This document shows positions 20,042-35,774 of a stretch of 45,905 nucleotides of DNA, piece by piece (positions within the stretch are counted from its first letter, which is position 1; each line of letters begins with the position of its first letter). Location: NCBI GenBank assembly GCA_026991575.1, contig JALXBF010000136.1:1-45905 (forward strand). Reading direction: 5' to 3'. Below the pieces are notes generated by a model. That model was given only the letters and a program-made list of their open reading frames with translations. It had not been told where the DNA came from and searched no databases. The DNA is from Planctomycetota bacterium. Lineage in GTDB: Bacteria > Planctomycetota > Planctomycetia > JALXBF01. The position numbers and the translations under genes are program-made.

Positions 20042-20611
20042 ATGAGTAACGTGTCTGCGAAGCGTTCCCTACAGCGGCGCACGGCCTTCAGCCTGATCGA
20101 AGTCGTGGCCGCCACGGTCGTGGCCACCTTGCTGCTGGCCGGAGCAGCCGGATTCTTGTCCTTCTTTGCGCGCTGGTCTGCTCGGGCAAACGACCGCATC
20201 GAGCAAGCACTGGGAACGACCATTGCGCTGGAGCGACTGCATCTGGAGCTGCAGCAAGCAACGGCGTTCTACACCATCGAGCAAGCGGTTGTCGAGTTCC
20301 GCCACCCCGATCTAGACGGCGACGGCCAGGACGAGGTGATCCGCTGGTCCTGGAGCGGCACTGCGGGCGATCCCCTGGTCCGAACGGTTCTGCGGAACGG
20401 GGTGGTCCGACAGCAAGCCGACGCGTCGCCCCCTCTTAGCAACTTTTCCCTGGAATACTGGATCCGCCAGGAACAGGATCAGACCACGGGCAGCACGAAG
20501 CAGTACCTGGTACTCGTGCTGGCGACGGCTTCGGATACGCTCATCCCTGAGCCTCGTGAGTTTCGCAAGGCCACGGTGTTGCTGAACCGCGTGGACGTAA
20601 CGGGGCTATAG
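20042..20611 (+). CDS. Minor pseudopilin, GspJ/PilW-like
   Basis: The 189-residue protein has a class III signal: a basic leader ending RRTA, then FSLIEVVAATVVATLLLAGA. Phe1 and Glu5 are conserved but the residue before the cut is Ala and not Gly. The helix is followed by a C-terminal globular domain (about 130 residues) with the EYWIRQ and VLLNRVDV strands seen in GspJ/PilW-like minor pilins. Start ATG 20042 sits directly after GGGGG; the GTG at 20051 has better spacing. It begins the minor pseudopilin block (J, I, K/X, H-like), likely the tip complex that initiates assembly. Confidence 0.85.
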   Translation: MSNVSAKRSLQRRTAFSLIEVVAATVVATLLLAGAAGFLSFFARWSARANDRIEQALGTTIALERLHLELQQATAFYTIEQAVVEFRHPDLDGDGQDEVIRWSWSGTAGDPLVRTVLRNGVVRQQADASPPLSNFSLEYWIRQEQDQTTGSTKQYLVLVLATASDTLIPEPREFRKATVLLNRVDVTGL

Positions 20612-20613
20612 CG

Positions 20614-21156
20614 ATGCGCTTGCCTCAGCGTGCCGAGTCGCTGCGCCATTGCCGACCGGCTGGGCGGCGTGCAGCGCTGAGCTACTTGGAAACCATGGTC
20701 TCCGCGGCGCTGATCAGCATGGTGGTGATCGCTGCATGCCGCGTGCTTGCCGGGAGTGCGCACGGTTTGCTGGTCTCGGAAGCCCTGCTGCACGGCGCGC
20801 AGCTTGCGGACGAGCTGATGGCCGAGGTGCTCACGCAACCATACGAGGATCGGGACGAACCAGGTGGGTTCGGGTTGGAAGCGGGGGAGTCGGGCACGAG
20901 TCGCAGCGAGTTCGACGACGTCGATGACTACAACGGCTGGGACGCATCGCCACCGCAGGCAAAGAACGGCAAGCAGCTCGCTGGCTACGGGGGGTACCGC
21001 CGCACTGTCGTGGTCGAGCAGGTGTCGGACTCGGATCTGCAAACGGTGGTCCCTGTGGGGTCTAGCTCATTCAAGCGGGTCACGGTCTGCGTGTACTACG
21101 GCAGTCGGCTCGTGGCAAAACGGCAAGTGGTGATGAGTCGTAATGCGGAGAACTGA
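20614..21156 (+). CDS. Minor pseudopilin, GspI/PilV-like
   Basis: Begins two bases after the J-like gene. The leader ends RRAA, followed by LSYLETMVSAALISMVVIAA: Glu5 is present, Leu replaces Phe1 and Ala stands at -1. The helix is short and the globular part (about 140 residues) contains ELMAEVLTQPYEDRDEPGG, the usual I/V-type region after the helix, and a long acidic loop (EFDDVDDYNGWD) that could bind calcium. The C-terminal strand pair (VTVCVYYGSRLVAKRQVVM) fits. It overlaps the next gene by 14 bases. Confidence 0.85.
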   Translation: MRLPQRAESLRHCRPAGRRAALSYLETMVSAALISMVVIAACRVLAGSAHGLLVSEALLHGAQLADELMAEVLTQPYEDRDEPGGFGLEAGESGTSRSEFDDVDDYNGWDASPPQAKNGKQLAGYGGYRRTVVVEQVSDSDLQTVVPVGSSSFKRVTVCVYYGSRLVAKRQVVMSRNAEN

Positions 21157-22438
21157 TCCAGCCAATCAGGGGCATGCTTCCCGTGACGGGATAGGGCCAG
21201 TCTGTTCGATGGTTCCGCGCGCCGGGGCCGTTACGTTCTTCCTGGTCATGGTGCTGGCGGCCCTCACCCTGGCCACCTCGATTGCCCTGGTTACCGGGAC
21301 TATGGCTGGGCGTGAGGCGTGCGCGGCATTGCAGGAGGGTGGTCAGTTTGATTGGACGCTGCGGTCGGGAATCCAGTGGGCGTTATGGCGTGTTTACGGT
21401 GATGCCAACTGGAGAACAACCTTGCCGGTCGGCCCTGACGACGCCTGGCTGACAGCCCCGATGAGCGTGGGTGGAACGACGTTTATGGTCTATGGCTTCG
21501 ATCCCGTGGACGGTGACTTCGCCGACGATCCTACGGATCCGGTAGCGCTGAGGGTGCAAGCGGCGCTGGGAGAGACAACGGCCGAGTGTACAGCAACGCT
21601 CGAACCGTATCCTCACCCGGCACTTGCTTATGCCGTGTTCTCATCGGAGAACCACATCCTGTTCAAGAACGGGCCGGTGCTTCAGGCTCCGGTGCGGGGC
21701 AACGCAGCGTTGGATGATGACGGTAAGACGGTCGTGGACGTCTCAGCCGGGGGCAGGCTTGAGACCGTTCAGGGCGCCTCGGTCAAGGGCAACCTCTTGC
21801 CGTACACTACGTTTGTGCCGCAGGCCATGCCGGAGGTGAAGCCGGATTTTGGCTGGTATGCTGCTCGCGCGACCGTGTTACCGGACACCTCAATCAGCCG
21901 CGCCTCGCTGACCGAGACGGCATTGATCATCGATGGCAACCGGTTCGCACCGAACCCGAACGGCATCTACTTGATCGACGGAGGATACGACTCCGTCAGC
22001 TTGAAGGACGTCTACCTCAGGGGCACGCTCCTGATCCGGCACGCCGAAGGCGTCTCTATCACCGGCGGCTTTCGCTGTGACATTGGACCACTCGGCGGTC
22101 CCACGCTCCTGGCCAGAACGATGGCGCGCACGATGGTGAAGATCGACATCAGTGTCGGGCAGCTGGACGAGGCGGCCGACCAGGTGGACTACAACGGGGA
22201 CGGCGATAGGCGGGACGTGATCCCGTGCCAGCTCACCGGCATGCTGTGGACCAATCGGAAGCTACAGCTTCAGCCCAGCGTTCCGATCGTCAGCGAGGGG
22301 CTGCTGGTGGGGAAGCACATTCACATTTACGGGCCCGTAGAGCTGCGGAAGTTCCCGGGTCAGGAAAGCTGGCGTCAGCCGGGCATGCTCGGGCCCGGAC
22401 TCCGTCTGCGTCCCGGCAGCGTGAGGCGAATCCGATGA
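21143..22438 (+). CDS. PilX/GspK-like pilus assembly protein with beta-helix-like domain
   Basis: 431 residues from ATG 21143. ATG 21209 (MVPRAGAVTFFLVMVLA) is an alternative that leaves just the leader and helix. The N-terminal segment RAGAVTFFLVMVLAALTLATSIAL has a Gly-Ala cut-like site and no Glu5, as in PilX and GspK. The large remainder contains LEPYPHPALAYAVFSSENHILFKNG followed by repeated short strands (GNAALDDDG, VKGNLLPYTTF, LKDVYLRGTLLIRH), which resemble a right-handed beta-helix and differ from the alpha-domain of GspK. It may crown the pseudopilus tip. Homology is inferred from the N-terminus and position only. Confidence 0.75.
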   Translation: MRRTDPANQGHASRDGIGPVCSMVPRAGAVTFFLVMVLAALTLATSIALVTGTMAGREACAALQEGGQFDWTLRSGIQWALWRVYGDANWRTTLPVGPDDAWLTAPMSVGGTTFMVYGFDPVDGDFADDPTDPVALRVQAALGETTAECTATLEPYPHPALAYAVFSSENHILFKNGPVLQAPVRGNAALDDDGKTVVDVSAGGRLETVQGASVKGNLLPYTTFVPQAMPEVKPDFGWYAARATVLPDTSISRASLTETALIIDGNRFAPNPNGIYLIDGGYDSVSLKDVYLRGTLLIRHAEGVSITGGFRCDIGPLGGPTLLARTMARTMVKIDISVGQLDEAADQVDYNGDGDRRDVIPCQLTGMLWTNRKLQLQPSVPIVSEGLLVGKHIHIYGPVELRKFPGQESWRQPGMLGPGLRLRPGSVRRIR

Positions 22439-22965
22439 ACCGAGCACGGTCGCGACCGCTTCGCTCCGGTTTCACCTATGCCGACGTCATGGTCGCGCTC
22501 TTGATGGTGGCGATCCTGGCCGCCGTCGCCTGGCCTTCGCTTCATAGCTATGCGTCTCGCCAAAAGCTGGTCCAGGCGGGCCGGCGGCTGGCAGCCGATC
22601 TGCGCTGGTCGCGGTTGCGTGCGGTGCGCAAGCGGCAAACGATCACGGTGAGGTTCTCGATCCGCGAAAACAGCTACACCTTCCCAGGACAGGCCGACCC
22701 GCTCCGCAAGCAGACTCCGTACCGCGTGGTGCTAGGGACTTTCAGTCCCGGCGTCCGGATCGCCGCCGTCTCCTTTGCCAACCTCCGTCTAAGCTGGTCT
22801 CCGCAGGGGCTGCCGTCACAGGCTGGCGAGATCCTGCTGCGTTACGGCAGCTGGCGGATACGCGTCACCGTAAACCCAGCCGGCACGGTGAAACTTAGCG
22901 AGGTGTGGACCGAACAGAGCACGGCGTCTGACTCGACGCCGATGCCCATGCGCATTGGCCCATGA
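22435..22965 (+). CDS. Minor pseudopilin, GspH/FimT-like
   Basis: ATG 22435 overlaps the preceding stop (ATGA). 176 residues. The class III signal is LRSG followed by FTYADVMVALLMVAILAAVAWPSL. Gly is at -1 but position 5 is Asp in place of the near-invariant Glu. The C-terminal domain has the GspH/FimT features: helix RRLAADLRWSRLRAVRKRQTI, strand ITVRFSIRENSYTFPG, and a final strand with YGSWRIRVTVNPAGTVKLS. It closes the minor pseudopilin block and converges on the HD-GYP gene with about 125 bases between stops. Confidence 0.87.
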   Translation: MNRARSRPLRSGFTYADVMVALLMVAILAAVAWPSLHSYASRQKLVQAGRRLAADLRWSRLRAVRKRQTITVRFSIRENSYTFPGQADPLRKQTPYRVVLGTFSPGVRIAAVSFANLRLSWSPQGLPSQAGEILLRYGSWRIRVTVNPAGTVKLSEVWTEQSTASDSTPMPMRIGP

Positions 22966-23092
22966 CGCTCGGCCGCGACGTGTCGGACAGCGGTTAGCTT
23001 CAGCGCTGGTCTCTGGTGAACGCGGCAGGCGGTGGCGGTACGACACTCTCGAAAGCCGTTCTGAAACGGGCAGACAGTGCTGTCGACGGCGA

Positions 23093-24601
23093 TTACTGTG
23101 TCTGGCCAGGAGCATGGACCGATACGACCGCTGCCGGTGTCTGCTGCTCAGCCGGCTCCTGACCTGGCGGCCGAACCGTTACCGGGACAGAGGCGTCCTG
23201 TTCCCACGTTTGGATTTCTTCGAACGAGACGTGGCCCTTTAGGTTCTCCGCCCAAACGACGAGCACATCATCCAGAGCACGGAAGAACGCATCCACAACG
23301 GTGCTGTCCCACTGCGTGCCGGCGCCTTCGCGCAGGATCGCGTAGATCTTCTCAAGCGGCATCCCCTGGCGGTACGGGCGGCTGCTGGCCATGGCGTCGA
23401 AGGAATCGGCCACGGCGATAATGCGGGCAATCAGAGGGATTTCGTTTCCTTTCAGCCCTTCCGGATAACCGCGTCCGTCGACGCGTTCGTGGTGGTACAG
23501 CACGCCGGGCAAGGCAAAGGAAAGCTTCTTCAGGTGGCGCAGGATGCGGTAACCCACGGCGGGGTGCTTCTTGATCTGATCGAATTCCTCCTCGGTCAGT
23601 CGTCCGGGCTTCAGCAATATGCTGTCCCGTACTCCGATCTTGCCCACATCGTGCAACAGGCCCGCCATGTAGACCTGGTCGCATTCCTCCTCGCTGAGCC
23701 CCATCTCCTCGGCGATGATGCGGGCGATCAACGCAACGCGTGCGCTGTGACCGCAGGTGTACGGATCTTTGGCGTCGATGGCCGACACCAGCGCCTGCAC
23801 CATCTTGAACATGAATTCCCGCTGTTCCCGCAGCAGGGCCATGTTGCTGGCGTGCACGCCGAGAATCTGGGCCGTCGTACGCAACAGCGACGCTTCCACT
23901 GTGCCGAACCCCTCCGGACACGTGCTGTTGACGGCGAGGATCCAGCCGTAGGTGGTCGTCCCGTAGACGATCGGGACAGCAATGGCAGACCGTACGCGGC
24001 CGCTGCCCAGTGCCAGCTGGTTGTTGAGCACGAGGCTACCGGCGCGGTGGCTGTCCGGATGTTCCCGAAGGGCCGCCAGGACTTCGTCTAAAAAGTTCTC
24101 CTCCTGCTTCGTGCCCTCACAATGCCAGCAGACGCGTTTAGCATCTTCGGTATGCTTCAGTGCAAGCGTCTCAGCCTGCAGCAATCTGTGCAACGACGGG
24201 GCAAGCTCACAGGCAATGTCCCATGTCGAGCGCTGCTCCTTAGACAGCTCCATGAGCACGGCCAGCTTGCGGAGGTAGTCGAGTTCCTCCAGCTGAAACG
24301 TCATCTGCTCGGCAAGGGCCCGGACCTGGTAGTCCTTCCGCTGGCTGGAGGAGGCTACTCGACTGACGAAGGTGAGCAGCTGCTCGATGATCGCTTGGAC
24401 CTGTTTCGGATCCGCTTCGAAGCTGACTTTCAGCGACACCCCTTCGCCGACTGGTACCGAGCAAGATAACGTTTCGCTCGTCCGAGTCGCTGCTGCCTGG
24501 TGCGGTCGTGCCAGCGACAGCGTTGAGTCTCCCTCTTCCAGCTCAAGGCACACGGTGCCGCAGCCGCGGAGCGTGTTCACCAACTGCTTCACGAAGTCCA
24601 T
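23093..24601 (-). CDS. HD-GYP domain protein with GAF-like sensor, predicted c-di-GMP phosphodiesterase
   Basis: 502 residues, cytoplasmic. An N-terminal region of about 110 residues of unknown type is followed by a GAF-like domain (about 120-262, SLHRLLQAETLALKH, then AIAVPIVYGTTTYGWILAVNS). The HD-GYP domain follows (about 270-440): H285 in GHSARVA, the metal pair H317-D318 in LLHDVGKIGV, and HHERVDGRGYPEGLKG, with the GYP triplet intact. These are the residues needed to hydrolyse c-di-GMP to pGpG or GMP. The C-terminal 60 residues are unstructured. It points the opposite way to the secretion genes, divergent from gspG, and shares a 330-base regulatory region with it. Confidence 0.92.
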   Translation of the reverse strand: MDFVKQLVNTLRGCGTVCLELEEGDSTLSLARPHQAAATRTSETLSCSVPVGEGVSLKVSFEADPKQVQAIIEQLLTFVSRVASSSQRKDYQVRALAEQMTFQLEELDYLRKLAVLMELSKEQRSTWDIACELAPSLHRLLQAETLALKHTEDAKRVCWHCEGTKQEENFLDEVLAALREHPDSHRAGSLVLNNQLALGSGRVRSAIAVPIVYGTTTYGWILAVNSTCPEGFGTVEASLLRTTAQILGVHASNMALLREQREFMFKMVQALVSAIDAKDPYTCGHSARVALIARIIAEEMGLSEEECDQVYMAGLLHDVGKIGVRDSILLKPGRLTEEEFDQIKKHPAVGYRILRHLKKLSFALPGVLYHHERVDGRGYPEGLKGNEIPLIARIIAVADSFDAMASSRPYRQGMPLEKIYAILREGAGTQWDSTVVDAFFRALDDVLVVWAENLKGHVSFEEIQTWEQDASVPVTVRPPGQEPAEQQTPAAVVSVHAPGQTQ

Positions 24602-24931: not shown

Positions 24932-25447
24932 ATGCGGAGTCGTAAAGCGTTCACGCTCATCGAACTCGTGGCGGTGGTGCTGATTTTGGGCATCCTGGCA
25001 GCGATCGCCGCGCCGAAGGTGTTCCGCGGATCGGATGACGCCGGTGAAGCCGCGTTGCGACAAAACCTTGCGGTCATCCGCGACGCGATCGAGCTGTACG
25101 CTCTGGAGCACGGTGGCCGATTCCCGGGTTCCACTTCCGACGGCACCAACCCGGCCGGTACGGAAGCAGCATTCAAGAACCAGTTGCTCATGTACACGGA
25201 CGCCAACGGCAACGTCTCACCCACTCGCGACGCCGCCCATCCGTACGGTCCTTATCTGCGGAAGACGTTCCCTCCGGCCCCGGTCGGGCCCAAGAAGGGT
25301 TCCAACGATGTGGCGGTGGTGGGTGACGGACAGCCGCTGTCGGGTGACAACACGACCGCCTGGAAGTACGACTACACGACCGGCGAGTTCATCCTCAACA
25401 GCAACGCGGTCTCCAGTGACGGTACCACCACGTATGACGACTTCTAG
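24932..25447 (+). CDS. gspG: Major pseudopilin
   Basis: The ATG follows GGAGGT (24921-24926) at a good spacing, consistent with high expression. 171 residues. Class III signal: MRSRKA followed by FTLIELVAVVLILGILAAIAAPKVF. Phe1 and Glu5 are present and Ala stands at -1. The helix is followed by ALRQNLAVIRDAIELYALEHGGRFPG, typical of GspG, then a globular part ending with TAWKYDYTTGEFILNSN, which matches the GspG C-terminal beta region. The calcium loop of classical GspG is hard to place, so identity as GspG and not a type IVa pilin rests on the C-terminal motif. It is the first gene of the assembly operon that continues to the secretin. Confidence 0.88.
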   Translation: MRSRKAFTLIELVAVVLILGILAAIAAPKVFRGSDDAGEAALRQNLAVIRDAIELYALEHGGRFPGSTSDGTNPAGTEAAFKNQLLMYTDANGNVSPTRDAAHPYGPYLRKTFPPAPVGPKKGSNDVAVVGDGQPLSGDNTTAWKYDYTTGEFILNSNAVSSDGTTTYDDF

Positions 25448-25538
25448 CTCGGTTCGCTCGTGACGATCGTAGGGATTTTGTCGACCGTACGGCGGTGGCT
25501 GCCGATAGTTGCCAATGGGGGTGCCCCGGAGGACCGGG

Positions 25539-25925
25539 ATGAAGGTGTTGATTGCCGAGGACAATCCGGCCCTGGCGGCGGTGCTAGAGTTTAATCTGGC
25601 GAAGGTCGGTGCGGAGGTAACCTGGGCGGCCGACGGCCAGACGGCGATCGAAGAGTTGCAGCGGACAGCGTTCGACCTGGTCATTACCGATTACCAGATG
25701 CCCGGTGCAACCGGTGTGGAAGTCCTGGAGGCGGCACGAGCGGACGGTCCCAACACGACAACCCCGGCAATCCTGCTGACCGCTCGCGAATTGGAGCTGG
25801 ACGTGGCCGCGTTGCGCGAACGGCTTGGGCTGGCCGCCGCGTTGCCCAAGCCGTTTAGCCCGCGTGAGGTGGTCGAGCTGTCACAGCGGCTGGCGACCCA
25901 GCGGACGCCTCAGCCACACGCGTAA
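25539..25925 (+). CDS. Single-domain response regulator (receiver only)
   Basis: ATG 25539 follows GGAGG (25528-25532), giving 128 residues that are one receiver domain. The frame is open ten codons upstream, but the ribosome site settles the start. Key residues: acidic pair in LIAEDN, phospho-acceptor Asp in LVITDYQMPG, Thr in LLTAR and Lys in LPKPF. There is no output domain, as in CheY or Spo0F, so it probably acts by protein contact. It lies 15 bases before the histidine kinase, which is its probable partner. Confidence 0.9.
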   Translation: MKVLIAEDNPALAAVLEFNLAKVGAEVTWAADGQTAIEELQRTAFDLVITDYQMPGATGVEVLEAARADGPNTTTPAILLTARELELDVAALRERLGLAAALPKPFSPREVVELSQRLATQRTPQPHA

Positions 25926-25940
25926 CATCGGCGGAGAACG

Positions 25941-27749
25941 ATGGCGGCACGGAGCGCCACGATACGACGACGCATCATCGCTTGCTTTGTCCTTAGCGGC
26001 GCGATCATTGCCATCGGTTCTGCTCTGGGCACTGTCCAGTTGGCCCGCTCGGTCTTGGCCGACCATCGCGTGGAAACGGCGCTGAACCGACTCGGTTGGG
26101 CGGCCCGTCAACTGGAGCAGGCGTACGCTCAGGGTGGCATCGAAGCGGTGCGCAATAAGCTGCCCGAGATCCGCCGCACCACGCTCGCGCTCTACTGCGG
26201 GGTCGCCAATCCCGACGGCACCTACGTCGCCCACACCATCCCCAGTCGTATCGGCGAGCCGATGGAAAGCCACGACGGAAGGCTTCAGCGGTGGGGCAAC
26301 ATTCAGCGTGTGCGCTTCAGCAGTGAACAGGGGCCGGTCGAAGAGTACCGACTGCCGCTGCGCCATCGAGGCCGCTTCATCGGCACGTTCTGCATGGCCG
26401 TCCGCCTGCCATCGTTTCGAGCACTTTCCTGGCAGCTGCTCCGCAAGCCCGCTCTGCTGCTGGCCGTGCCCCTGCTGGTCACCTTGCTGGGTGGTCTCTG
26501 GCTGACCCGATCCCTGGGGAGCACCGCCGCGGTTATTGCCCAGTTGGAAACGCTGGCCGACAGCGACGCGCCCCAGGCGAACCGGCTGGTAACGGTCCGA
26601 CCACAGGACCGCGCCACCATCGGCTGGAACCGGCTGGTCCGCCAGCTCGGGCGGGGGTCAGCCGCTGAGGGGACCAGCAGCGTCGCCGACGCACTGAAAC
26701 GCTACCAGGAATACCGCAGCAACGAAGTGCTCAACAGTCTCCCGGACGGCATCGCGGTCACGGACGCAGCAGGACGGGTACGTACCGCAAATACGGCATT
26801 CGCTTCGTTGGTGGGCCGCAGTGAGGATCAGGTGCGTGGGGAGGATATCCACGTGCTGCTGAATCTGCGAGCCCATCCGGACGTGCTCGCCCGGTTTCGC
26901 GATGAACACACGCTGGGTCGTCAGGTCACGGCCGAGCTGGAAGAGGACCGGGGCGGCAACGTGATCACGCTGAGGATCCAGCGGCTGCCGCTGCGGACCG
27001 GCTCGGACGAGGGCTACCTGTGGATCGTTCGGGACGTGACCCAGCAGGTACTCGCCCAGAAGATGAAGACGCAATTCGTCTACGCCGCCACTCACGAACT
27101 GCGTACCCCGCTGTCCAACATTCGCGCCTATGCCGAGACGCTGGCGCTGGCCGAAACGCTGGACACGGCCAAACAGCGTGAGTTCTGCAACATCATCAAC
27201 AGCGAAGCTATGCGGCTAGAGAAGCTGATTGAGGACTTGCTGAACCTCAGTCGGCTTGAAGCGGCCGCGTTGAGCCTGAACGTCGGACCGGTCGACCTGC
27301 AGCGGCTCGTTGAGGAGGTTATTACGAACATCCGGCCTACGGTGGAGAAGAAGCGGCAGAAGTTGCGGGTGCGGCTGCCGGAGAAGTACTTCCCGGCCAC
27401 GCTCGACAAGGACAAGATCATTGTCACGCTGGTCAACTTGCTGGGCAACGCCGTGAAGTACACTCCAGAGGAAGGCGAAATCCGCTTCGAGGTGTATCAG
27501 ACCGAGAGCCACATCCGCTTTGTGGTGGAAGACACCGGAATCGGGATCGCGCCGGAGGATCTTCCTCACGTGTTTGAGAAGTTCTATCGCAGTCGCGACC
27601 CACGCGTGGCCAAGATCTCCGGTTCAGGTATTGGCCTGGCACTGGCAAAAGAGATTGTCGAGCTACACGGTGGTCGAATCACCGTCGAAAGCGAGCTCAA
27701 TCGGGGCACGCGGTTCACGGTGGTACTGCCAGCGGTGGCGGCTTCGTGA
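25941..27749 (+). CDS. Membrane sensor histidine kinase (PAS, HisKA, HATPase)
   Basis: 602 residues. Helix 1 at about 12-35 and helix 2 at about 170-192 enclose a periplasmic sensor of about 130 residues. A HAMP-like linker follows, then a PAS domain (about 258-365, LPDGIAVTDAAGRVRTANTAF). The HisKA motif TQFVYAATHELRTPLSNIRA has the phospho-acceptor H385. HATPase boxes are complete: N box (NLLGNAVKYTPEEGE), G1 (DTGIGIAPED), F box (FEKFYRSRDP) and G2 (GSGIGLALAKEI). It resembles the PhoR/WalK group. Start ATG 25941 follows GGAGAA. It sits between the receiver protein and a STAS protein inside a pilus/secretion operon, so it probably senses envelope or surface state. Confidence 0.93.
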   Translation: MAARSATIRRRIIACFVLSGAIIAIGSALGTVQLARSVLADHRVETALNRLGWAARQLEQAYAQGGIEAVRNKLPEIRRTTLALYCGVANPDGTYVAHTIPSRIGEPMESHDGRLQRWGNIQRVRFSSEQGPVEEYRLPLRHRGRFIGTFCMAVRLPSFRALSWQLLRKPALLLAVPLLVTLLGGLWLTRSLGSTAAVIAQLETLADSDAPQANRLVTVRPQDRATIGWNRLVRQLGRGSAAEGTSSVADALKRYQEYRSNEVLNSLPDGIAVTDAAGRVRTANTAFASLVGRSEDQVRGEDIHVLLNLRAHPDVLARFRDEHTLGRQVTAELEEDRGGNVITLRIQRLPLRTGSDEGYLWIVRDVTQQVLAQKMKTQFVYAATHELRTPLSNIRAYAETLALAETLDTAKQREFCNIINSEAMRLEKLIEDLLNLSRLEAAALSLNVGPVDLQRLVEEVITNIRPTVEKKRQKLRVRLPEKYFPATLDKDKIIVTLVNLLGNAVKYTPEEGEIRFEVYQTESHIRFVVEDTGIGIAPEDLPHVFEKFYRSRDPRVAKISGSGIGLALAKEIVELHGGRITVESELNRGTRFTVVLPAVAAS

Positions 27750-28108: not shown

Positions 28109-29848
28109 ATGCCAACGCACCCCGCTAGCCAAATCGCACCGGACCGTTCCGCCGGCGGCAGCGAGCGGCTGCCGCTGGGTGAGCGACTGCTACGCGCCGG
28201 GCTCATCAACGACGAACAACTCCGCACCGCGCTCCGCAAGCAAGCCTCCCTGGGCGGCCGACTCGGCGAAGTGCTCGTGCAGCTCGGCTTCGTGCCCGAG
28301 GACGCGCTGCTGCCGTACATCGAGGAGCAACTCCGGGTGCCGGTGGTCAAGCTGCGCGAAGGCCTGATCGACCCGGCCGTCGTGCGGTTGATCCCCCGGG
28401 TCAAGGCGGAACAGATCCATGCTCTGGCGTTGTTCAAGGTTCGCGGCGTGCTCAGCGTGGCCATGGCTGAGCCGCAGAACCTGCAGCAGATCGACGACCT
28501 GGAGCGACTCACCGGCCTCCGTGTCCGCCCCGTGTTCGCCTTCCGATGGGCAATCGACCGGATGCTGCAGCGGGTCTACGAGGAGGACTTCGCCGTCGAG
28601 GCGGTCACGGCCGACTTTGACGAGTCAGCCATCGAAGTCCAGAGCGAATCGCTCGATTTCGACCTGAGCAGCATCATCAGCCAGGCAGACGAAAGCCCGA
28701 TCGTCAACCTCGTCAACTTCCTGATCATCAGTGCCGTGCGCCAAAAGGCCAGCGACATCCATATCGAGCCGTCACGCAATCACTCAACGGTCCGCTTCCG
28801 CGTCGACGGTCTGCTCAGAGAAGTGCTTCGGCCCCGCCGCGACGTCCACCCGGCACTGGTCTCGCGCATCAAGGTCATGGCCAAAATGGACATCGCCGAA
28901 CACCGCGTGCCGCAAGACGGCCGCGTCCATGTTGTGGTTGACGGCCGCCCGATCGACCTGCGCGTTTCGACCCTGCCCACGGTCATGGGTGAGAAGGTGG
29001 TCATCCGGATCCTGGACCGCCAGCGGCTCACCTTCGACCTGGAACAACTCGGCTTCTCCGAAGAACAGCTCGAAACTGTCAAAGAGATGCTAGCTGCCCC
29101 CTACGGGCTGATCCTCGTCACCGGGCCAACCGGCAGCGGCAAGACCACGACGCTCTACAGCGCGGTCGAGCTGATCAAGTCCGTGCACCGCAACATCGTC
29201 ACCGTAGAGGACCCGGTGGAATACCAGCTGGAGCTGGTCAATCAGGTGCAGGTCAACGAGGTAGCCGGCTTGACGTTCGTCAGCGCCCTACGTGCCATCT
29301 TGCGCCAGGACCCGGACGTGATCATGGTCGGTGAGATCCGGGACGCGGCGACCGCCCAGGTGGCCGTGCAGGCTGCGTTGACCGGTCACCTGGTGCTGAG
29401 CACGCTTCACACGAACGACAGCGCCTCGGCCGTGACCCGTCTGGTGGACATGGGAGTCGAGCCGTTCAAGCTAGCTGCGTCGCTGGTGGGCGTCATCGCT
29501 CAACGACTCATCCGCACGATCTGTCCGTCCTGCAAGGCGCTTTACTACCCGCCCCAGCGGATGCTGGCTCGGATTGCGTATCAGGGCGACGAGCAACGGC
29601 CTTTCTGGCGTGGCCTGGGCTGTGAGGCCTGTCACGACACCGGCTTCCAGGGCCGCACAGCAATCTATGAGATCCTGCGCGTGGATGAGCAGTTGAGACG
29701 GGTGATTGCCCAGGGGGCAGACGTAGCCGAGTTGCGCCGGTTGCACCGCCAGCGCGGAGGCCGGCCGCTGTTTGACCAGGCGTTGCAGATGGCAGAGGCA
29801 GGCAGGACAAGTCTGGAGGAGGCGGTTCGCGTGGCGTACGTGGAGTAA
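28109..29848 (+). CDS. gspE: GspE/PilB-family assembly ATPase with N-terminal MshEN c-di-GMP motif
   Basis: 579 residues. Residues 22-45 and 51-74 form two MshEN motifs (PLGERLLRAG...LxxxLxxQ and RLGEVLVQLG...LxxxIxxQ), separated by the canonical five residues (ASLGG). MshEN tandem motifs bind c-di-GMP in MshE-type ATPases. The ATPase core has Walker A GPTGSGKT (339-346), Walker B DPDVIMVGEIRD (E409 catalytic), an Asp box and the His box (LVLSTLHTNDS). A zinc site C472-x2-C475 ... C505-x2-C508 is present, as in GspE and PilB. It polymerises pseudopilin by driving GspF. Start ATG 28109 lies two bases after the STAS stop. Confidence 0.95.
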   Translation: MPTHPASQIAPDRSAGGSERLPLGERLLRAGLINDEQLRTALRKQASLGGRLGEVLVQLGFVPEDALLPYIEEQLRVPVVKLREGLIDPAVVRLIPRVKAEQIHALALFKVRGVLSVAMAEPQNLQQIDDLERLTGLRVRPVFAFRWAIDRMLQRVYEEDFAVEAVTADFDESAIEVQSESLDFDLSSIISQADESPIVNLVNFLIISAVRQKASDIHIEPSRNHSTVRFRVDGLLREVLRPRRDVHPALVSRIKVMAKMDIAEHRVPQDGRVHVVVDGRPIDLRVSTLPTVMGEKVVIRILDRQRLTFDLEQLGFSEEQLETVKEMLAAPYGLILVTGPTGSGKTTTLYSAVELIKSVHRNIVTVEDPVEYQLELVNQVQVNEVAGLTFVSALRAILRQDPDVIMVGEIRDAATAQVAVQAALTGHLVLSTLHTNDSASAVTRLVDMGVEPFKLAASLVGVIAQRLIRTICPSCKALYYPPQRMLARIAYQGDEQRPFWRGLGCEACHDTGFQGRTAIYEILRVDEQLRRVIAQGADVAELRRLHRQRGGRPLFDQALQMAEAGRTSLEEAVRVAYVE

Positions 29849-29863
29849 GGTGCAATCACGACG

Positions 29864-30982
29864 ATGAGCACCGCAATTGCCGGGGAACAAGCCGGCCGTT
29901 GCACGGCACAAGCTGCACCAGGGGCCGGCGCGGGCTTGGCTGCCTGGCGCTGCCGCAGCGCGCTGCCGGCAATCGTGCGTCAGCTCGCGATCATGATCCG
30001 CGCCGGGCTGGACCTCAGCACCGCCCTGGAGACACTGAGCCGCGGGGCAAGCCGGCCCGAAGTTCGGCAGCTCGTGCAGAGCTTGCATGAGCAGGTCGAA
30101 CGGGGCGTTTCGTTTGCCCGCGCCCTGGAAGAGCGGCGGGACATCTTCCCGCCTGTGCTCATCGCCAGCGTCGCCGCCGCAGAAGCTTCCGGCACCCTGG
30201 CACCCGCACTGGAGCGGGCCGCAACGGCACTGGAAGAAGAACGCCGCCTGCGTCGATCCGTTCTCGGTATGCTTGCCTACCCGATCGCACTGGTGGTCCT
30301 CTCGATCCTCGTGCTCACCGCGCTGTTGATCTTCGTGCTGCCGCGGTTCGAAGACATCTTCGACAGCGCCGGCGTACCGCTGCCATGGACCACCGCTTTC
30401 CTGCTGGCCTGCTCCAACGCCTTGACCGCCCACCCGCTCATGGTCCTCGGTGCCGCGGCCATCGCCGGCCTGGCCGGCTACTTTCTGGTCAGCTCGCCCG
30501 GGGGGCGCCGGTGGCTAAGGCAGCGGCTGCTCTACAGCCCCGCTCTGGGTGAAGTGCTCCGCAACATCGAGCTTGGGCGACTGCTGCATGGCATCGGCAC
30601 CATGCTCGATTGCGGCGTCCCGCTCCTGGAGGCACTGGACCTGGCTGGCCGGACAACGAGTTACGAAGATTTCCGCGAGCTAACCGGTCGCCTCCGTGAG
30701 TCGGCACTGAAAGGTCAAGGACTGGCGCAGCCGCTGCGCACCAGCCCGCTTGTGCCGCTGGAAGTGGCCGAGATGGCGGCTACGGCCGAACGCACTGGAT
30801 CCCTTGCCTGGGTCTTGCAATTCGTCGGCAAGCAATACCAGGAAGCGGCCGAGGCGCGACTAAAAGTGCTCGTGCGCCTGGCCGAGCCGGTGCTGATCCT
30901 CTGTCTGGGGGGACTGGTGGCAATCATCGTCGCCAGCGTCATGCTGCCCCTGTTCGATCTGTCGCAGGTCGCAGCTGGCTGA
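29864..30982 (+). CDS. gspF: Inner-membrane platform protein
   Basis: 372 residues, GspF/PilC family. Two GspF domains are visible: one N-terminal (about 35-160, LPAIVRQLAIMIRAGLDLSTALETL, then FPPVLIASVAAAEASGTLAPAL) and one C-terminal (about 235-360, RLLHGIGTMLDCGVPLLEALDLA, then VPLEVAEMAATAERTGSLAWVL). Three membrane helices lie near 150-172, 195-215 and 340-362. The platform couples GspE to pseudopilin extraction from the membrane. The first 34 residues are a low-complexity extension. It follows gspE by 15 bases. Confidence 0.94.
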   Translation: MSTAIAGEQAGRCTAQAAPGAGAGLAAWRCRSALPAIVRQLAIMIRAGLDLSTALETLSRGASRPEVRQLVQSLHEQVERGVSFARALEERRDIFPPVLIASVAAAEASGTLAPALERAATALEEERRLRRSVLGMLAYPIALVVLSILVLTALLIFVLPRFEDIFDSAGVPLPWTTAFLLACSNALTAHPLMVLGAAAIAGLAGYFLVSSPGGRRWLRQRLLYSPALGEVLRNIELGRLLHGIGTMLDCGVPLLEALDLAGRTTSYEDFRELTGRLRESALKGQGLAQPLRTSPLVPLEVAEMAATAERTGSLAWVLQFVGKQYQEAAEARLKVLVRLAEPVLILCLGGLVAIIVASVMLPLFDLSQVAAG

Positions 30983-31006
30983 ACCGCATTGGAGGCACTT
31001 GTAGCG

Positions 31007-31273
31007 ATGGAGCGCAGTCGATCAAACAGCTGGCTTGTGCCGCTGGGCATCGGCCTCCTGTTGGGCTACGCCCTGGCCTGCGGTAGGGCTGGCGGATGGC
31101 AACCTGAGCAAACCGCGCAGGCCCAGAGCCGCAAGCCTCTGTTCCGCGGCCAGAGCGCCGTACTCCTGGAGCGAATCGCTCAATCCGTCGATCAGATCGC
31201 ACGCAGCGTGCAGCACATCGAACGCCAGCTCCGCGGCAAGGACGCACGACAGCAACACGGCAGCAAACGATGA
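31007..31273 (+). CDS. Small bitopic membrane protein with amphipathic helix
   Basis: 88 residues from ATG 31007, preceded by GGAGG (30991-30995). Residues 10-25 are a membrane helix (LVPLGIGLLLGYALAC). The second half is an amphipathic helix (LLERIAQSVDQIARSVQHIERQLRG) that could form a coiled coil, with a basic tail. I recognise no family. It lies between gspF and pilM and shares an ATGA overlap with pilM, so it is a likely accessory part of the machine, perhaps in the GspL/PilM-PilN-PilO platform. Confidence 0.65.
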   Translation: MERSRSNSWLVPLGIGLLLGYALACGRAGGWQPEQTAQAQSRKPLFRGQSAVLLERIAQSVDQIARSVQHIERQLRGKDARQQHGSKR

Positions 31274-32307
31274 TCTCCTGGCGCAAGCCCAACATGGTCG
31301 GCATTGATCTGGGCTCATCCCGCGTCAAGCTCGCCCGGCTGGACCGGCACCGTGCCGATATCGGGGCGCGGGTCGGCATGGCCCCGGTAGACCTTCAGCC
31401 GGAACCGTCGCCGGAGGTCTGGCTGGACCTGGTCCAAGGCGCCGTGCAACTTGCCGCCGAGCGTGCCGGCACGGAGCTACATGGGCAGCGGGTGGCGTTC
31501 CTGCTGCCGCCCCAGTGGACCGAAGTCCGATCACTGCCCGCAGTAAACCTGACCAAAGAGACGGCACCCGCCGAGGTGGCGGCGTACGTCGAACGGGAGC
31601 TGGGCAGCGACCTGGCCGGGTGTGTCTGGGATTACTGGTTCGCCGAAAAGGATGGCGAGCCCATCGAGCTGTTGGTGGTGTTTGCCCGCATGGCCTACGC
31701 CGATCGGATTGCTCGCCTGGCGCTGCGGCTCCGCTGTGAGCTGGCCACCGTGGATGCCCTGCCCTGGGCACACTACCGCCTGTTCCGGCTCGCCATGCCG
31801 CAGTGTCCGGAAGGGGGTGTCGTGCTGGAATGGGGATTGACCCAGGCGTGGTTCACGCTGGTCGGCCGCCACGCACCGTTGTACTGCCGCCGGCTGCCCC
31901 GCGTCCGTTTCGTTGATGTCGTGGATCGCCTGAGCGAAGCGCTTGGCATAAGCCCGGACGTCGTGCTCGCTGCGCTCCGCGAAGAGGAGCAGGGCGGACC
32001 GCAGGCAAAGCTGTGGCACGAACTGTTGGATGAGACAAGCCACGCGGTCGTGCACCGCTTCAGCGAAGAAGTCCAGCGGACGCTTGAGTTCGCGCGGAGT
32101 CGTTACGGGTCCGGATCGACCGACATCATCCTTGCGACCGGAGGAGTGTTCGCACTGGCACCGGTGCGTGAGCGTGTGACTGCACTGCTTGGTCAAGCCG
32201 TGCACGGCCCCCGCTGCAGTAGCTGGCAGCGCTGGCCGTTGTTTCCACTGTACGGTACGGCTTGTGCGCTGGCCGCACTGGACGTAGCCGATGCGACAGT
32301 ACTGTAA
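31270..32307 (+). CDS. pilM: PilM-like actin-fold ATPase
   Basis: 345 residues. The actin-like fold is indicated by the N-terminal phosphate loop VGIDLGSSRVKLARLD, the PilM-type middle region (VAFLLPPQWTEVRSLPAVNLTKET) and the C-terminal IILATGGVFALAPVRERV. PilM is cytoplasmic and binds the N-terminus of PilN. The start overlaps the preceding gene by four bases. Compared with classical PilM (about 354 residues) the length fits. T2SS would have GspL here, so a separate PilM points to a type IV pilus-type platform. Confidence 0.87.
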   Translation: MISWRKPNMVGIDLGSSRVKLARLDRHRADIGARVGMAPVDLQPEPSPEVWLDLVQGAVQLAAERAGTELHGQRVAFLLPPQWTEVRSLPAVNLTKETAPAEVAAYVERELGSDLAGCVWDYWFAEKDGEPIELLVVFARMAYADRIARLALRLRCELATVDALPWAHYRLFRLAMPQCPEGGVVLEWGLTQAWFTLVGRHAPLYCRRLPRVRFVDVVDRLSEALGISPDVVLAALREEEQGGPQAKLWHELLDETSHAVVHRFSEEVQRTLEFARSRYGSGSTDIILATGGVFALAPVRERVTALLGQAVHGPRCSSWQRWPLFPLYGTACALAALDVADATVL

Positions 32308-32869
32308 CTTGACCACAAGCCGGGGCTACTGGATCGCGCGCGGCAGCCGTCTGCTCTGGCGCGGCCTGCCACCGGCAGCGGTCGTGCTGGCTACCACGCT
32401 GCTGATCCTCGGCCTGCAGGCCTGGGAACTACGCCGGCTGGCAACCCAACGCGACAGTTGGCAACAACAGGCTGACCAGGTCGCCCGGCTCAGAGAGAAA
32501 GTCAGCCGGTTGCACAGGGAGCGCGAAGAACTCCAGCAAAAGGTACAGGCGGTTGGCAGCGTCAGTCGGGGACTACCGCCCGCCTGGCTCCTGGCCCTGC
32601 TCGGCGAGGCGGTCGATGCTGCCCACCGGAACGTGCTCGTTCGTGAAGTGCAGTTCACCGAGGGGCCCGACGGGCCGAGCTTCTACGCCATCAACGTACG
32701 GGGATGGGCTCGGGGCCATGCCGACGTGGCCAGCTTCGTGGCACGGCTGCGGCTGGACCCGGCAACTCGGCACATCGAGATCGAAAGAGTCGCCGCCCGT
32801 CCGGATGAACAGCTCGTTGAGTTCACGGTCTCGTTTGCTGTGGGCAAGCAGAGGCGGGAGGAGAGGTGA
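32291..32869 (+). CDS. pilN: PilN-like bitopic platform protein
   Basis: 192 residues. One membrane helix at about 28-46 (AAVVLATTLLILGLQAW) follows a cytoplasmic tail with RGYWIARGSRLLW. A coiled coil (about 48-88, LATQRDSWQQQADQVARLRE) leads to a ferredoxin-like domain (VREVQFTEGPDGPSFYAINVRG). PilN uses its tail to bind PilM and its coil to pair with PilO. The tail lacks the exact INLLP motif of classical PilN. It overlaps pilM by 17 bases and its TGA stop overlaps the next ATG. Confidence 0.82.
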   Translation: MRQYCNLTTSRGYWIARGSRLLWRGLPPAAVVLATTLLILGLQAWELRRLATQRDSWQQQADQVARLREKVSRLHREREELQQKVQAVGSVSRGLPPAWLLALLGEAVDAAHRNVLVREVQFTEGPDGPSFYAINVRGWARGHADVASFVARLRLDPATRHIEIERVAARPDEQLVEFTVSFAVGKQRREER

Positions 32870-33465
32870 TGAGCGAGTGCGGCACGATCAACGAGGCGCG
32901 GTGGCAAGCGGTGCAGAAATGGCTGCGCACCGCCCTGGTGGGATCTGTCGTGCTCACGGCCGTGGCCGGATACGTGGCCAGCCGCTGGCTGGAGGGGATC
33001 GCCAGGAGCTGGCAACGCGAGCTGCGCGAAGCACAGCGGAAAGCCCTGGCCAAGCAACAGGTGCTGGCCGCCTTGGAGCGGGCTCAGCAACAACTCCGCC
33101 GCGCTCACGAGCGATGGCGCGCGATACGGCGGCAGGTGCCCGAACGAGCCGACAGGCCTGGTTTCTTCCAACAACTGGTCTCGCTGGCCGACCGCTGCGG
33201 CCTTGCACTGGCAAACCTGGCTCCGGCCGGCGAAAGGAAGCGCGATCGCTATGCCGAGTTCTACCTGAAGGGAGACGCGACCGGCGACTACCGGGCCGTA
33301 GCACAGTTCCTGTGGCACTTCAGCCGGCTGGAGCGTGCGGCCCGCATGACACAACTGACCTTGCGCCGCGAAGGTGAGCTCTATCACATCACCTTCACGG
33401 TCGCCGTGCCCTACGGACTGGCACGCGCCGAGCAGACGCAGCAACACTTGAAACCGGGCACGTGA
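32869..33465 (+). CDS. pilO: PilO-like bitopic platform protein
   Basis: 198 residues from ATG 32869, with GGAGG just upstream. Helix at about 20-40 (LRTALVGSVVLTAVAGYVAS), long coiled coil (about 45-85, WQRELREAQRKALAKQQVLA) and a ferredoxin-like periplasmic domain with the PilO-type segment GFFQQLVSLADRCGLALANLAP, then FYLKGDATGDYRAVAQFLWHF. PilN and PilO pair in the inner membrane and connect the cytoplasmic ring to the secretin through PilP. GTG 32866 is a weaker start. Confidence 0.84.
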   Translation: MSECGTINEARWQAVQKWLRTALVGSVVLTAVAGYVASRWLEGIARSWQRELREAQRKALAKQQVLAALERAQQQLRRAHERWRAIRRQVPERADRPGFFQQLVSLADRCGLALANLAPAGERKRDRYAEFYLKGDATGDYRAVAQFLWHFSRLERAARMTQLTLRREGELYHITFTVAVPYGLARAEQTQQHLKPGT

Positions 33466-33474
33466 GGAGAAGCC

Positions 33475-34020
33475 ATGGCCATTTCGGAACGCACGAAGTG
33501 GCTGATTGTCGGTGTGCTTGCGGTCATCTTAATCGGAGTGGTCTGGTACCAGGTCAACCGGGCCGATGAGCCACCGGCGGCGCTGTTGACCCCGCGGCAG
33601 GCGGTGGTCCGCAAGGCTCGCGTGCGGTCGGCCGAGCCTATACCAGCGGTGTCGATCGAACCGCCTGAATCGCTCGCTCCCCTCCTTGCGCGCAACCCGT
33701 TCGACAACCCGAAACTCGTGGCCAGCACCGCGCAGGATGAGCCGCAGGCGGAGCCAGAGCCAGTCGACCCGATCAACCTGGTTCCCGAATGGCTAAGGAC
33801 CGGAAGAATCGAAGCTGTGATCAACCGCAACGACGAGCGGATCGCCATCATCGCGGGTCGCACCGTGCGTGAAGGCCAACAGATCGGCGGCGTCGAAGTA
33901 GTACGGATTACCGAACGGGAGATTGTGCTGCGGCCGATCGAAACCCCCGCAGCATCGCCGGCCCAGTCCGGCAACGAGCCGGGCAAAGCTAGCGGACGGG
34001 ACAACGCCCATGAGAACTAG
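33475..34020 (+). CDS. GspC/PilP-like periplasmic linker protein
   Basis: 181 residues, ATG after GAGGAG. It has one N-terminal membrane helix (about 8-25, WLIVGVLAVILIGVVWYQV), a proline/alanine/glutamate-rich linker and a small beta-sandwich near the C-terminus (PEWLRTGRIEAVINRNDERIAIIAGRTVREG, then VEVVRITEREIVLRP) that matches the homology-region fold shared by GspC and PilP. The N-terminal helix without a lipobox favours GspC; the position after PilO favours PilP. Its role is to connect the inner-membrane platform to the secretin. The next gene starts inside its 3' end (11-base overlap). Confidence 0.8.
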   Translation: MAISERTKWLIVGVLAVILIGVVWYQVNRADEPPAALLTPRQAVVRKARVRSAEPIPAVSIEPPESLAPLLARNPFDNPKLVASTAQDEPQAEPEPVDPINLVPEWLRTGRIEAVINRNDERIAIIAGRTVREGQQIGGVEVVRITEREIVLRPIETPAASPAQSGNEPGKASGRDNAHEN

Positions 34021-35518
34021 CGTCTTTGCCAGTTCACGACCGCATATCGTCCTGATCGTCCTGATCGGCGCGTTCGCGGTAACGTCTGCGTGCTGCTGTG
34101 GCGTGCGCGCCGCACGGGCGCAGGCCCCCGATGCTGACGGTCGTCTGGCGCTCGAGCTCAACGAAGACGGTACCTTCACGCTCCCGCTGCGGACTCAGCA
34201 GCAGGACGTCCAGGTGGACACCGCTTCAGGCACCGTGTCGGTGCGGGCTGAGGGAGTGGCAGCGGGGCGGGTCGTACAGCTGATCGCGGAAGCCGCGGAC
34301 CTGAATGTGGTCGTGGTTGGCGACCTGAGCGAACCGGTGACCCTGCACCTGAAGGACGCACCGGTCGATCGCGCCCTGAACGCAGTCCTTGAGCTCACCG
34401 GCCACGTCGCCCTGCGTGAAGGCAATCTCATCAAGATCGTGCCCGTGACAGCAGCCAACAACCAAGCGCTGCCTGGCACGGTGGTCCGCGTTTTCCGTCT
34501 GCGCTACGTGCGCGCCAGCAGCATTCGCGCCGGACTGGACGCCCTAAAATCGCCCCGCGGGATCATCCAGGTTCTCGAAACCCCCGCCGTGCCAAGCGTT
34601 GATCAACCGGTCTCCGACGTACTGCTGCCGCGCGACACCATCGTCGTCTCGGACCTGCCCGAATACGTGGCACGTATTGCCGCCTACATCCGCCAGGTGG
34701 ACGTGCCGCCGGAGCAGGTGATGCTGGAAACCCGCATCCTGGAGGTCAAACTCGCCCGTGGCATCCGTACCGGCTTTCAGTTCCTAGGTGAGTTCGAACC
34801 AGGCAGCAAGGTGGTCACATTCCGCTTGAACGGGTTTGCTTCGTCGAATCCAACGGAAGGTTTCGCGTTCACGATAGAAGGTAGTGAGCTGAACACGATT
34901 CTGGACATGCTCGAGACCACTGCGGATGCGAAGACGCTGGCCGCGCCGCGACTGATGGTGACCCACGGCCAACAGGCGCGCATTCAGATCGGCCGCAGCA
35001 TCAGCTACCGGGTTACAACGGTCACGGAAGTCGCACAGCTCGAGGACGTTCGCTTTCTGGACACGGGCATCGTGCTGCGGCTGATCCCATACATCGACCG
35101 TGACGGCCGCATCCTGATGCGTCTGCGTCCGGAAGTGTCCCAAGCCGAAATCAACGAGGACACGAAGCTGCCAGACAAGACGACGACTGAAGTAGAGACG
35201 ACCGTGCTGGTGCACGACGGCGAAGGCCTGGTGATCGGCGGACTGATCCAGGAAAAGGACGTGGACAATCGGAGCAAGTTGCGGAAACTGGCAGATCTAC
35301 GATGGATCGGACATCTATTCCGGCGAACGGAAGTCGACCGCGAACGGCGGGAGATTATCATCGCGCTGGTGCCATACCTGTACCCGGGTGACGAGTCCCG
35401 TCAGGCGGAGAACCAGGCCCAGGTCGAGCGTGTAAGCTATCCTCTGTTAGAAGAGGACCTCAGGCCAACGCCACGTCCCTGGGAGCCACGGCTCCATCAG
35501 CCTGAGGCGCCGAAGTAG
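34010..35518 (+). CDS. gspD: Secretin (outer-membrane pore), GspD/PilQ-like, short form
   Basis: 502 residues from ATG 34010; the upstream open frame is not signal-like. A signal peptide ends near ARAQ (about residue 37). N-terminal domain (about 60-150): DVQVDTASGTVSVRAEGV, then VAAGRVVQLIAEAADLNVVV and VTLHLKDAPVDRALNAVLE (STN/N0-type), then a single N1-like segment (VFRLRYVRASSIRAGLDAL) and IVVSDLPEYVARIAAYIRQVD. The secretin core follows, with VMLETRILEVKLARG, LAAPRLMVTHGQQARIQIG, RLRPEVSQAEI and VHDGEGLVIGGLIQE. No AMIN domain is seen and fewer N domains than in GspD or PilQ (about 650-770). Terminal gene of the assembly operon proper. Confidence 0.9.
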   Translation: MRTSVFASSRPHIVLIVLIGAFAVTSACCCGVRAARAQAPDADGRLALELNEDGTFTLPLRTQQQDVQVDTASGTVSVRAEGVAAGRVVQLIAEAADLNVVVVGDLSEPVTLHLKDAPVDRALNAVLELTGHVALREGNLIKIVPVTAANNQALPGTVVRVFRLRYVRASSIRAGLDALKSPRGIIQVLETPAVPSVDQPVSDVLLPRDTIVVSDLPEYVARIAAYIRQVDVPPEQVMLETRILEVKLARGIRTGFQFLGEFEPGSKVVTFRLNGFASSNPTEGFAFTIEGSELNTILDMLETTADAKTLAAPRLMVTHGQQARIQIGRSISYRVTTVTEVAQLEDVRFLDTGIVLRLIPYIDRDGRILMRLRPEVSQAEINEDTKLPDKTTTEVETTVLVHDGEGLVIGGLIQEKDVDNRSKLRKLADLRWIGHLFRRTEVDRERREIIIALVPYLYPGDESRQAENQAQVERVSYPLLEEDLRPTPRPWEPRLHQPEAPK

Positions 35519-35555
35519 GCAGGTCTGTCAAGTCAGGCTTTCGCGGGGCAGAGCT

Positions 35556-35774
35556 ATGACACAGTCGGGCAATCCCCTTCAAGTGCCGCCTGAACTGCTG
35601 CCGCTTATCGAGAAACGCTCCGGTAAGGACCGTCGCTCCGGCCGCGACCGCCGTAGACTAAGTCGAGTGGACCGGATCGAGTCGGCCATCAAGGCGCTGA
35701 ACGGAGTGCTGCACGACCGTCGTTCCGGCGTCGATCGCCGCTCAGGTAAGGACCGACGCAAGCAGAACAGCTAG
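35556..35774 (+). CDS. Small basic protein with repeated KDRRSG/RDRR motifs
   Basis: 72 residues. Two repeat blocks flank a helix: EKRSGKDRRSGRDRRR near the N-terminus and DRRSGVDRRSGKDRRK near the C-terminus, with VDRIESAIKALNGVL between. It follows the secretin by 37 bases on the same strand. Basic RRSGxDRR repeats are known as tails in many bacterial proteins, often linked to signalling or surface proteins, but no function is established. The repeat and the conserved-looking central helix support it as a real gene. Confidence 0.6.
   Translation: MTQSGNPLQVPPELLPLIEKRSGKDRRSGRDRRRLSRVDRIESAIKALNGVLHDRRSGVDRRSGKDRRKQNS

What the first reader, a model, noticed from the sequence alone, without database searches (positions are those of the whole stretch)
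20042..35774. Hybrid type II secretion/type IV pilus machine with embedded signalling genes
Pseudopilins, GspE, GspF and secretin are of the T2SS/T4P type, but the platform is PilM-PilN-PilO as in pili, with a GspC/PilP-like linker. A receiver, a histidine kinase and a STAS protein sit between gspG and gspE, and an HD-GYP gene lies between the minor and major pseudopilin genes. No retraction ATPase is nearby. I know of no described machine with this full set, though similar clusters may exist in planctomycetes.
Basis: partly seen in the sequence, partly recalled or inferred. Interest (0 to 1): 0.7.

Follow-up and report, generated by a model that had tools for sequence, protein, structure and literature searches.

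The report
Planctomycete pilus machine with built-in signalling
This is a type IV pilus/type II secretion-like machine of planctomycete bacteria whose genes always travel with a sensor kinase and a STAS switch protein, and in most lineages also with a receiver and a cyclic-di-GMP-degrading enzyme, which suggests that the machine carries its own control circuit.

Summary
Window 20042-35518 encodes four minor pseudopilins, a GspG-like major pilin, GspE, GspF, PilM, PilN, PilO, a GspC-like linker and a secretin. A receiver (REC), a Cache-PAS histidine kinase (HK) and a STAS protein lie between gspG and gspE. An HD-GYP gene lies between the minor and major pilin genes, on the opposite strand.

The refutation test, lack of conservation, failed. 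STAS directly precedes gspE in all 70 assessable related loci across Planctomycetota and in none of 67 outgroup loci. HK is present in nearly all. REC and HD-GYP are linked in most lineages, some with a single HK-REC-HDGYP-STAS-gspE-gspF block. These GspEs form one clade (97%) and the HK tree mirrors it.

It is a distinct, apparently undescribed lineage of the type IV filament superfamily, missing curated cut-offs for both T2SS and T4aP. Most likely it builds an adhesive pilus or pseudopilus whose motor is gated by HK, REC, HD-GYP/c-di-GMP and STAS. The signalling order is inferred. 'No retraction ATPase' is only local: three PilT-family genes lie elsewhere in the genome. Rated a new variant of a known kind.

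The parts
20042..20611 (+). GspJ-like minor prepilin, 189 aa
   Evidence: prepilin N-terminus by sight; homologs, often larger, in the same gene set of relatives
20614..21156 (+). GspI-like minor prepilin, 180 aa
   Evidence: homologs in the relatives
21143..22438 (+). large GspK/PilX-like minor pilin, 431 aa, likely tip subunit; no Glu5 by sight
   Evidence: model: long N-terminal helix 28-86 then beta domains, mean pLDDT 69; best but weak fold match ComZ pilin of T. thermophilus, E 4e-3; CBM_4_9 in several orthologs
22435..22965 (+). GspH-like minor pseudopilin, 176 aa
   Evidence: PF12019 1.8e-6
23093..24601 (-). HD-GYP phosphodiesterase, 502 aa, HDxGK and HHExxDGxGYP motifs intact
   Evidence: PF13487 2.3e-38; motifs conserved
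24932..25447 (+). GspG-like major (pseudo)pilin, 171 aa
   Evidence: PF07963 7.5e-7; TIGR01710 44.5 bits, below cut-off 88.85
25539..25925 (+). single-domain receiver (REC), no output domain; acceptor Asp and KPFSP motif
   Evidence: PF00072 1.2e-19; alignment of 47
25941..27749 (+). membrane histidine kinase: Cache, PAS, HisKA, HATPase_c; 602 aa
   Evidence: H- and N-box conserved; HK tree
27771..28106 (+). STAS-domain protein, 111 aa, regulatory-type serine kept
   Evidence: PF01740 8.1e-13; alignment of 50; precedes gspE in 70/70 loci
28109..29848 (+). assembly ATPase GspE/PilB with N-terminal MshEN domain
   Evidence: PF00437 1.6e-145, PF05157 9.4e-19; NF053729 over cut-off; tree
29864..30982 (+). 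platform protein GspF/PilC
   Evidence: PF00482 1.3e-50
31007..31273 (+). 88-aa ORF with one hydrophobic segment, possibly a platform accessory
   Evidence: reading frame; ORFs of 84-95 aa at the same place in L032, L033, L039, L040, no detectable homology to the window ORF
31270..32307 (+). PilM (actin-like, not fused to PilN)
   Evidence: profile vs PDB 2ych 3.3e-35; PF11104 in 25/29 aligned members
32291..32869 (+). PilN
   Evidence: PF05137 2.8e-4, just under cut-off; conserved position
32866..33465 (+). PilO
   Evidence: PF04350 6.7e-14
33475..34020 (+). GspC/PilP-like periplasmic linker
   Evidence: NF041515 GspC 2.3e-8, below cut-off; weak GspC structure match E 0.012
34010..35518 (+). 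secretin
   Evidence: PF00263 1.8e-35; PilQ 166.5 and GspD 148 bits, both below cut-off; start codon read

Best explanation
This is a planctomycete-specific machine of the type IV filament superfamily with its own built-in control circuit. Shown here: complete machine parts; intact catalytic motifs in HK, REC, HD-GYP and GspE; conserved physical linkage; a single GspE clade; co-inheritance with HK. Inferred: GspE, GspF, PilMNO, the linker and the secretin extend a GspG-like pilus or pseudopilus tipped by the large minor pilin, mainly for attachment to polysaccharide surfaces. The kinase senses a periplasmic cue through its Cache domain and phosphorylates REC. REC acts on the HD-GYP enzyme, changing local c-di-GMP, which is read by the MshEN domain of GspE. 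The STAS protein, made directly before GspE, acts as the adaptor or switch on the motor.
For: STAS is directly upstream of gspE in 70/70 assessable clade loci and in 0/67 outgroup loci. HK is near gspE in 68 of 71 clade loci, with several of the short contigs ending before its position. Some lineages carry HK-REC-HDGYP-STAS-gspE-gspF as one block (L167, L168, L170-L172) and others an adjacent REC-HDGYP pair (L155, L163). All STAS-linked GspEs form one clade (97%) within Planctomycetota; the neighbouring Omnitrophota/Margulisbacteria clade has REC just upstream of gspE without STAS. The 68 cluster HKs form one side of a branch (84) and mirror the GspE tree; distance correlations with GspE are r 0.71-0.81, 0/2000 permutations. 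Catalytic motifs are conserved. MshEN scores above the c-di-GMP motif cut-off, and MshEN is known to bind c-di-GMP (PMC5013675). Tip pilins of several orthologs carry CBM_4_9.
Against: No biochemical or expression data. The first Arg of MshEN motif I, which contacts c-di-GMP in MshE, is Pro in the window and many orthologs, and the related group-B system has degraded motif II, so c-di-GMP binding may be weak or lost. HD-GYP was not found near group B, and REC/HD-GYP were not found near gspE in most group-C loci within the DNA held. The window's own tip pilin has no CBM. HK and STAS do not look like an RsbW-type Ser-kinase pair, so the STAS mechanism is unknown.
Confidence: 0.55

Rival explanations
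1. A divergent type II secretion system: the short pseudopilus exports folded enzymes such as polysaccharidases, and the signalling genes turn secretion on when substrate is sensed.
For: GspG-, GspH-, GspJ- and GspK-like pilins, GspC-like linker (NF041515 2.3e-8) and no local PilT.
Against: PilM and PilN are separate, unlike fused GspL; the same genome has a more canonical T2SS on C100 whose GspE passes the TIGR02533 cut-off and which has a 500-aa PilN-matching protein of GspL size; no T2SS equivalog cut-off is met here; CBM-bearing tip pilins suggest a surface-exposed tip.
Confidence: 0.3
2. A DNA-uptake (competence) pilus with a ComZ-like tip receptor, regulated by the kinase module.
For: Best fold match of the 431-aa tip pilin is ComZ, described as a likely pilus-tip DNA receptor (PMC6561018); T. 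thermophilus PilF also has MshEN-type domains (PMC12002112).
Against: The match is weak (E 4e-3, TM about 0.2, model pLDDT 69); relatives carry carbohydrate-binding inserts instead; no competence genes seen in the cluster.
Confidence: 0.1
3. The signalling genes are a separate regulatory unit that merely shares an operon with the machine, for example controlling a sigma-factor partner switch through the STAS protein.
For: STAS proteins classically act as anti-anti-sigma factors and the Ser-bearing motif is conserved in 46 of 50.
Against: No anti-sigma (RsbW-type) or sigma gene is seen in the set; STAS adjacency to gspE persists through gene-order shuffling across the phylum while REC and HD-GYP move.
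Confidence: 0.15

Closest known systems
MSHA pilus of Vibrio cholerae (MshE with MshEN, c-di-GMP controlled)
   Same: Assembly ATPase with an MshEN domain and a secretin; MshE is controlled by c-di-GMP (PMC5013675, PMC7096442).
   Different: MSHA is not described with a linked HK-REC-STAS set (from general knowledge); MshL model 115.5 bits against a cut-off of 250.2; MshEN motif I Arg replaced here.
Type IVa pilus (PilB-PilC-PilMNOPQ)
   Same: Separate PilM, PilN, PilO; GspF/PilC; secretin closest to PilQ.
   Different: PilB 584 against a cut-off of 676 bits, PilQ 166.5 against 284; no local PilT; GspC-like linker; GspG-like pilin.
Type II secretion system
   Same: GspE, GspF, GspG/H/I/J/K-like pilins, GspC-like linker, secretin.
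   Different: No fused GspL; GspE 602 against 630, GspD 148 against 351, GspG 44.5 against 88.9.
PilS-PilR or Pil-Chp control of pili; RpfC-RpfG (HK, REC-HD-GYP) control (from general knowledge)
   Same: Two-component input to pili; REC coupled to HD-GYP.
   Different: Here REC is free-standing without an output domain, HD-GYP is a separate protein, and a STAS gene is fixed to the ATPase gene.
Omnitrophota/Margulisbacteria REC-gspE-gspF-gspG loci (L042-L044, L068)
   Same: REC directly upstream of gspE; neighbouring GspE clade.
   Different: No STAS or HD-GYP detected nearby.

Membership tests
Type II secretion system | GspE over TIGR02533 cut-off | tested here: not met
   602.2 against 630.25 bits
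Type II secretion system | fused GspL and GspM | tested here: not met
   separate PilM, PilN, PilO
Type II secretion system | GspD over TIGR02517 cut-off | tested here: not met
   148.1 against 351.35
Type II secretion system | GspC HR-type linker | tested here: inconclusive
   NF041515 34.1 bits against cut-off 150; weak match to a GspC structure, E 0.012
Type II secretion system | secretes folded proteins | not testable with these tools
   needs secretome
Type IVa pilus | PilM, PilN, PilO as separate genes | tested here: met
Type IVa pilus | PilB over TIGR02538 and PilQ over TIGR02515 cut-offs | tested here: not met
   584.4 against 675.65; 166.5 against 284.35
Type IVa pilus | PilT retraction ATPase | tested here: inconclusive
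   absent locally; three PilT-family genes elsewhere in the genome
MshEN c-di-GMP-receptor ATPases | NF053729 / PF05157 domain over cut-off | tested here: met
   64.9 against 38; PF05157 67.6 against 23.1
MshEN c-di-GMP-receptor ATPases | all key motif residues, Arg of both motifs included | tested here: not met
   motif II Arg, Gly and Gln kept; motif I Arg is Pro in the window
HD-GYP phosphodiesterase | HD and HHExxDGxGYP motifs | tested here: met
Two-component system | HisKA His, N-box, receiver Asp and Lys | tested here: met
Partner-switching (SpoIIAA/RsbV-type) STAS | conserved Ser plus partner RsbW-type kinase | tested here: inconclusive
   Ser kept in the window (INSAALE) and 46 of 50 homologs; no RsbW-type kinase seen in the cluster

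The most novel reading that the evidence does not exclude
A phylum-wide regulatory architecture in which a STAS switch docked on the type IV filament assembly ATPase, fed by a dedicated kinase-receiver pair and an HD-GYP phosphodiesterase, gates the motor post-translationally. To my knowledge this control mode is not described for any pilus or T2SS.
Probability: 0.4. Interest if true: 0.78.

Novelty: new variant of a known kind. Interest (0 to 1): 0.62.

Why it matters
It shows that a whole phylum carries a type IV filament machine with a built-in, co-inherited signalling set, directly testable in cultured planctomycetes (relatives were found in Rhodopirellula, Roseimaritima, Neorhodopirellula). 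It points to how surface-attached planctomycetes may decide to extend pili or export enzymes, and to STAS proteins as possible partners of assembly ATPases.

Tried and rejected
c-di-GMP or other riboswitch upstream of gspG: no Rfam match in the window, in the leader at E<=1, or in seven relatives. Chance co-location: rejected by conserved synteny with rearrangement. Recent independent recruitment of the kinase: disfavoured by the HK tree (support only 84). GspG fold comparison to separate T2SS from T4P: uninformative, no match better than E 0.54. GspC against PilP by PDB profile: too weak. Family- and order-level searches returned only the window's own genome. Functional exclusion between group A (28 of 298 class genomes) and group B (56): only one genome has both, 5.3 expected, uncorrected P 0.018; suggestive only, because relatedness is not corrected for.

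Full report
OBSERVATION. Gene calls from ORFs and family searches confirm the cluster. Order on the + strand: three minor prepilins (20042-22438), GspH (22435-22965), then HD-GYP on the minus strand (23093-24601), then GspG-like pilin (24932-25447), receiver (25539-25925), Cache-PAS histidine kinase (25941-27749), STAS (27771-28106), GspE (28109-29848), GspF, a small membrane ORF, PilM, PilN, PilO, GspC-like linker and secretin (34010-35518). PilM is secure only by family profile (PDB 2ych 3.3e-35). The downstream flank (TatD, GatB, GatA) is housekeeping.

GENOME CONTEXT. The host is a planctomycete: the nearest named GspEs are from Thermoguttaceae, Blastopirellula and other Pirellulales. The same genome has a more canonical T2SS (C100, GspE over TIGR02533), a PilB/PilT locus (C14), a Tad locus (C105) and two further PilT genes (C41, C73). 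Retraction in trans is therefore possible.

CONSERVATION. Group A, the window's type, is in 28 of 298 genomes of the class by a clear score gap (665 bits and more against at most 549), and in 13 loci from named records. In 39 loci (three duplicates removed), REC is near gspE in 35, HK in 37, STAS in 38 and HD-GYP in 29; some misses lie at contig ends. Minor pilins sit either on the minus strand beyond HD-GYP (most relatives) or on the + strand upstream of it (the window, L122, L123, L130), so the linkage has survived rearrangement. Group B (56 of 298) is a sister system with HK-REC-STAS-gspE-gspF in all 13 sampled loci. Other classes (L155-L173) have HK-STAS-gspE-gspF, and several have HK-REC-HDGYP-STAS-gspE-gspF as one block. 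STAS precedes gspE in 70 of 70 assessable clade loci and in none of 67 outgroup loci.

PHYLOGENY. A 140-tip GspE tree puts all STAS-linked GspEs in one clade of 70 (SH-aLRT 97), all planctomycete. Of the two unlabelled tips, one is a contig that starts inside gspE (L039); the other (L132) has STAS directly upstream within a longer ORF. Next to it (87) are Omnitrophota/Margulisbacteria GspEs with REC, or HK-REC, just upstream and no STAS. The 68 cluster kinases form one side of a branch against paralogs and outsiders (support 84) with much the same internal groups. Distances of REC, STAS, HK and HD-GYP correlate with those of GspE within group A (r 0.71-0.81, 0 of 2000 permutations). I infer one ancient assembly, first REC then STAS, followed by mostly vertical inheritance.

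MECHANISM. Shown: catalytic and acceptor motifs of HK, REC, HD-GYP and GspE are intact across the clade. Inferred: HK to REC to HD-GYP, supported by adjacent REC-HDGYP genes in L155, L163, L165, L167, L168 and L170-L172 and by known REC-HD-GYP fusions such as RpfG (general knowledge). c-di-GMP then acts on MshEN, whose two 24-residue motifs are described in PMC5013675. Caution: motif I Arg is Pro in the window and many orthologs, and group B has lost key motif II residues; in T. thermophilus GSPII-A, lacking the motif II Arg abolished binding even in a repaired construct (PMC12002112), so c-di-GMP binding must be measured. The genome has three GGDEF and four HD-GYP loci, so c-di-GMP is probably made. 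STAS is the most constant partner and the least explained; an adaptor or switch on GspE is my best guess.

FUNCTION OF THE FILAMENT. The tip-like 431-aa pilin lacks Glu5 by sight and models as a pilin helix plus beta domains; its best but weak fold match is ComZ. Several orthologous tip pilins carry a CBM_4_9 insert (3 of 8; three more), which favours attachment to polysaccharides. Secretion and DNA uptake remain possible.

CLASSIFICATION. No T2SS, T4aP or MSHA equivalog cut-off is met by GspE, GspF, secretin or GspG, so I do not file it as a member of any. It works like the PilMNO-type machines of the superfamily. Denise et al. 2019 (PMC6668835) does not mention planctomycetes in its main text. 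Literature searches found no description, with the limit that much of the literature is not held.

Noticed in passing
L137-L148, L174: Sister machine (group B) in 56 of 298 class genomes with HK-REC-STAS-gspE-gspF; only one genome has both A and B, suggesting that they may replace each other.
   Followed up: partly
L111:1954-3711, L116:16152-17885, L120:16253-18076 and 3 of 8 members of alignment A6 (pilX orthologs): CBM_4_9 carbohydrate-binding domain inserted in the large tip-like minor pilin.
   Followed up: partly
L042, L043, L044, L068: Omnitrophota/Margulisbacteria/Saganbacteria GspEs with a receiver gene immediately upstream: possible ancestral state of the signalling link.
   Followed up: partly
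window 31007-31273: 88-aa ORF with one hydrophobic segment between gspF and pilM; ORFs of similar size at the same place in several relatives without detectable homology to it.
   Followed up: partly
L031, L033, L040, L116, L132 (pilJ orthologs): GspJ-like minor pilins of 530-700 aa with large unannotated C-terminal modules, against 189 aa in the window.
   Followed up: partly
window 24681-24932: Terminator-like sites and one promoter-like site, then a roughly 190-nt leader before gspG with no Rfam match.
   Followed up: partly
window 2323-4071: PAS-GAF protein with C-terminal receiver domain, not linked to the machine.
   Followed up: no
L041 gspE and HD-GYP: Reading-frame breaks in the L041 contig, probably assembly errors; L029 has intact, closely similar genes.
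   Followed up: no
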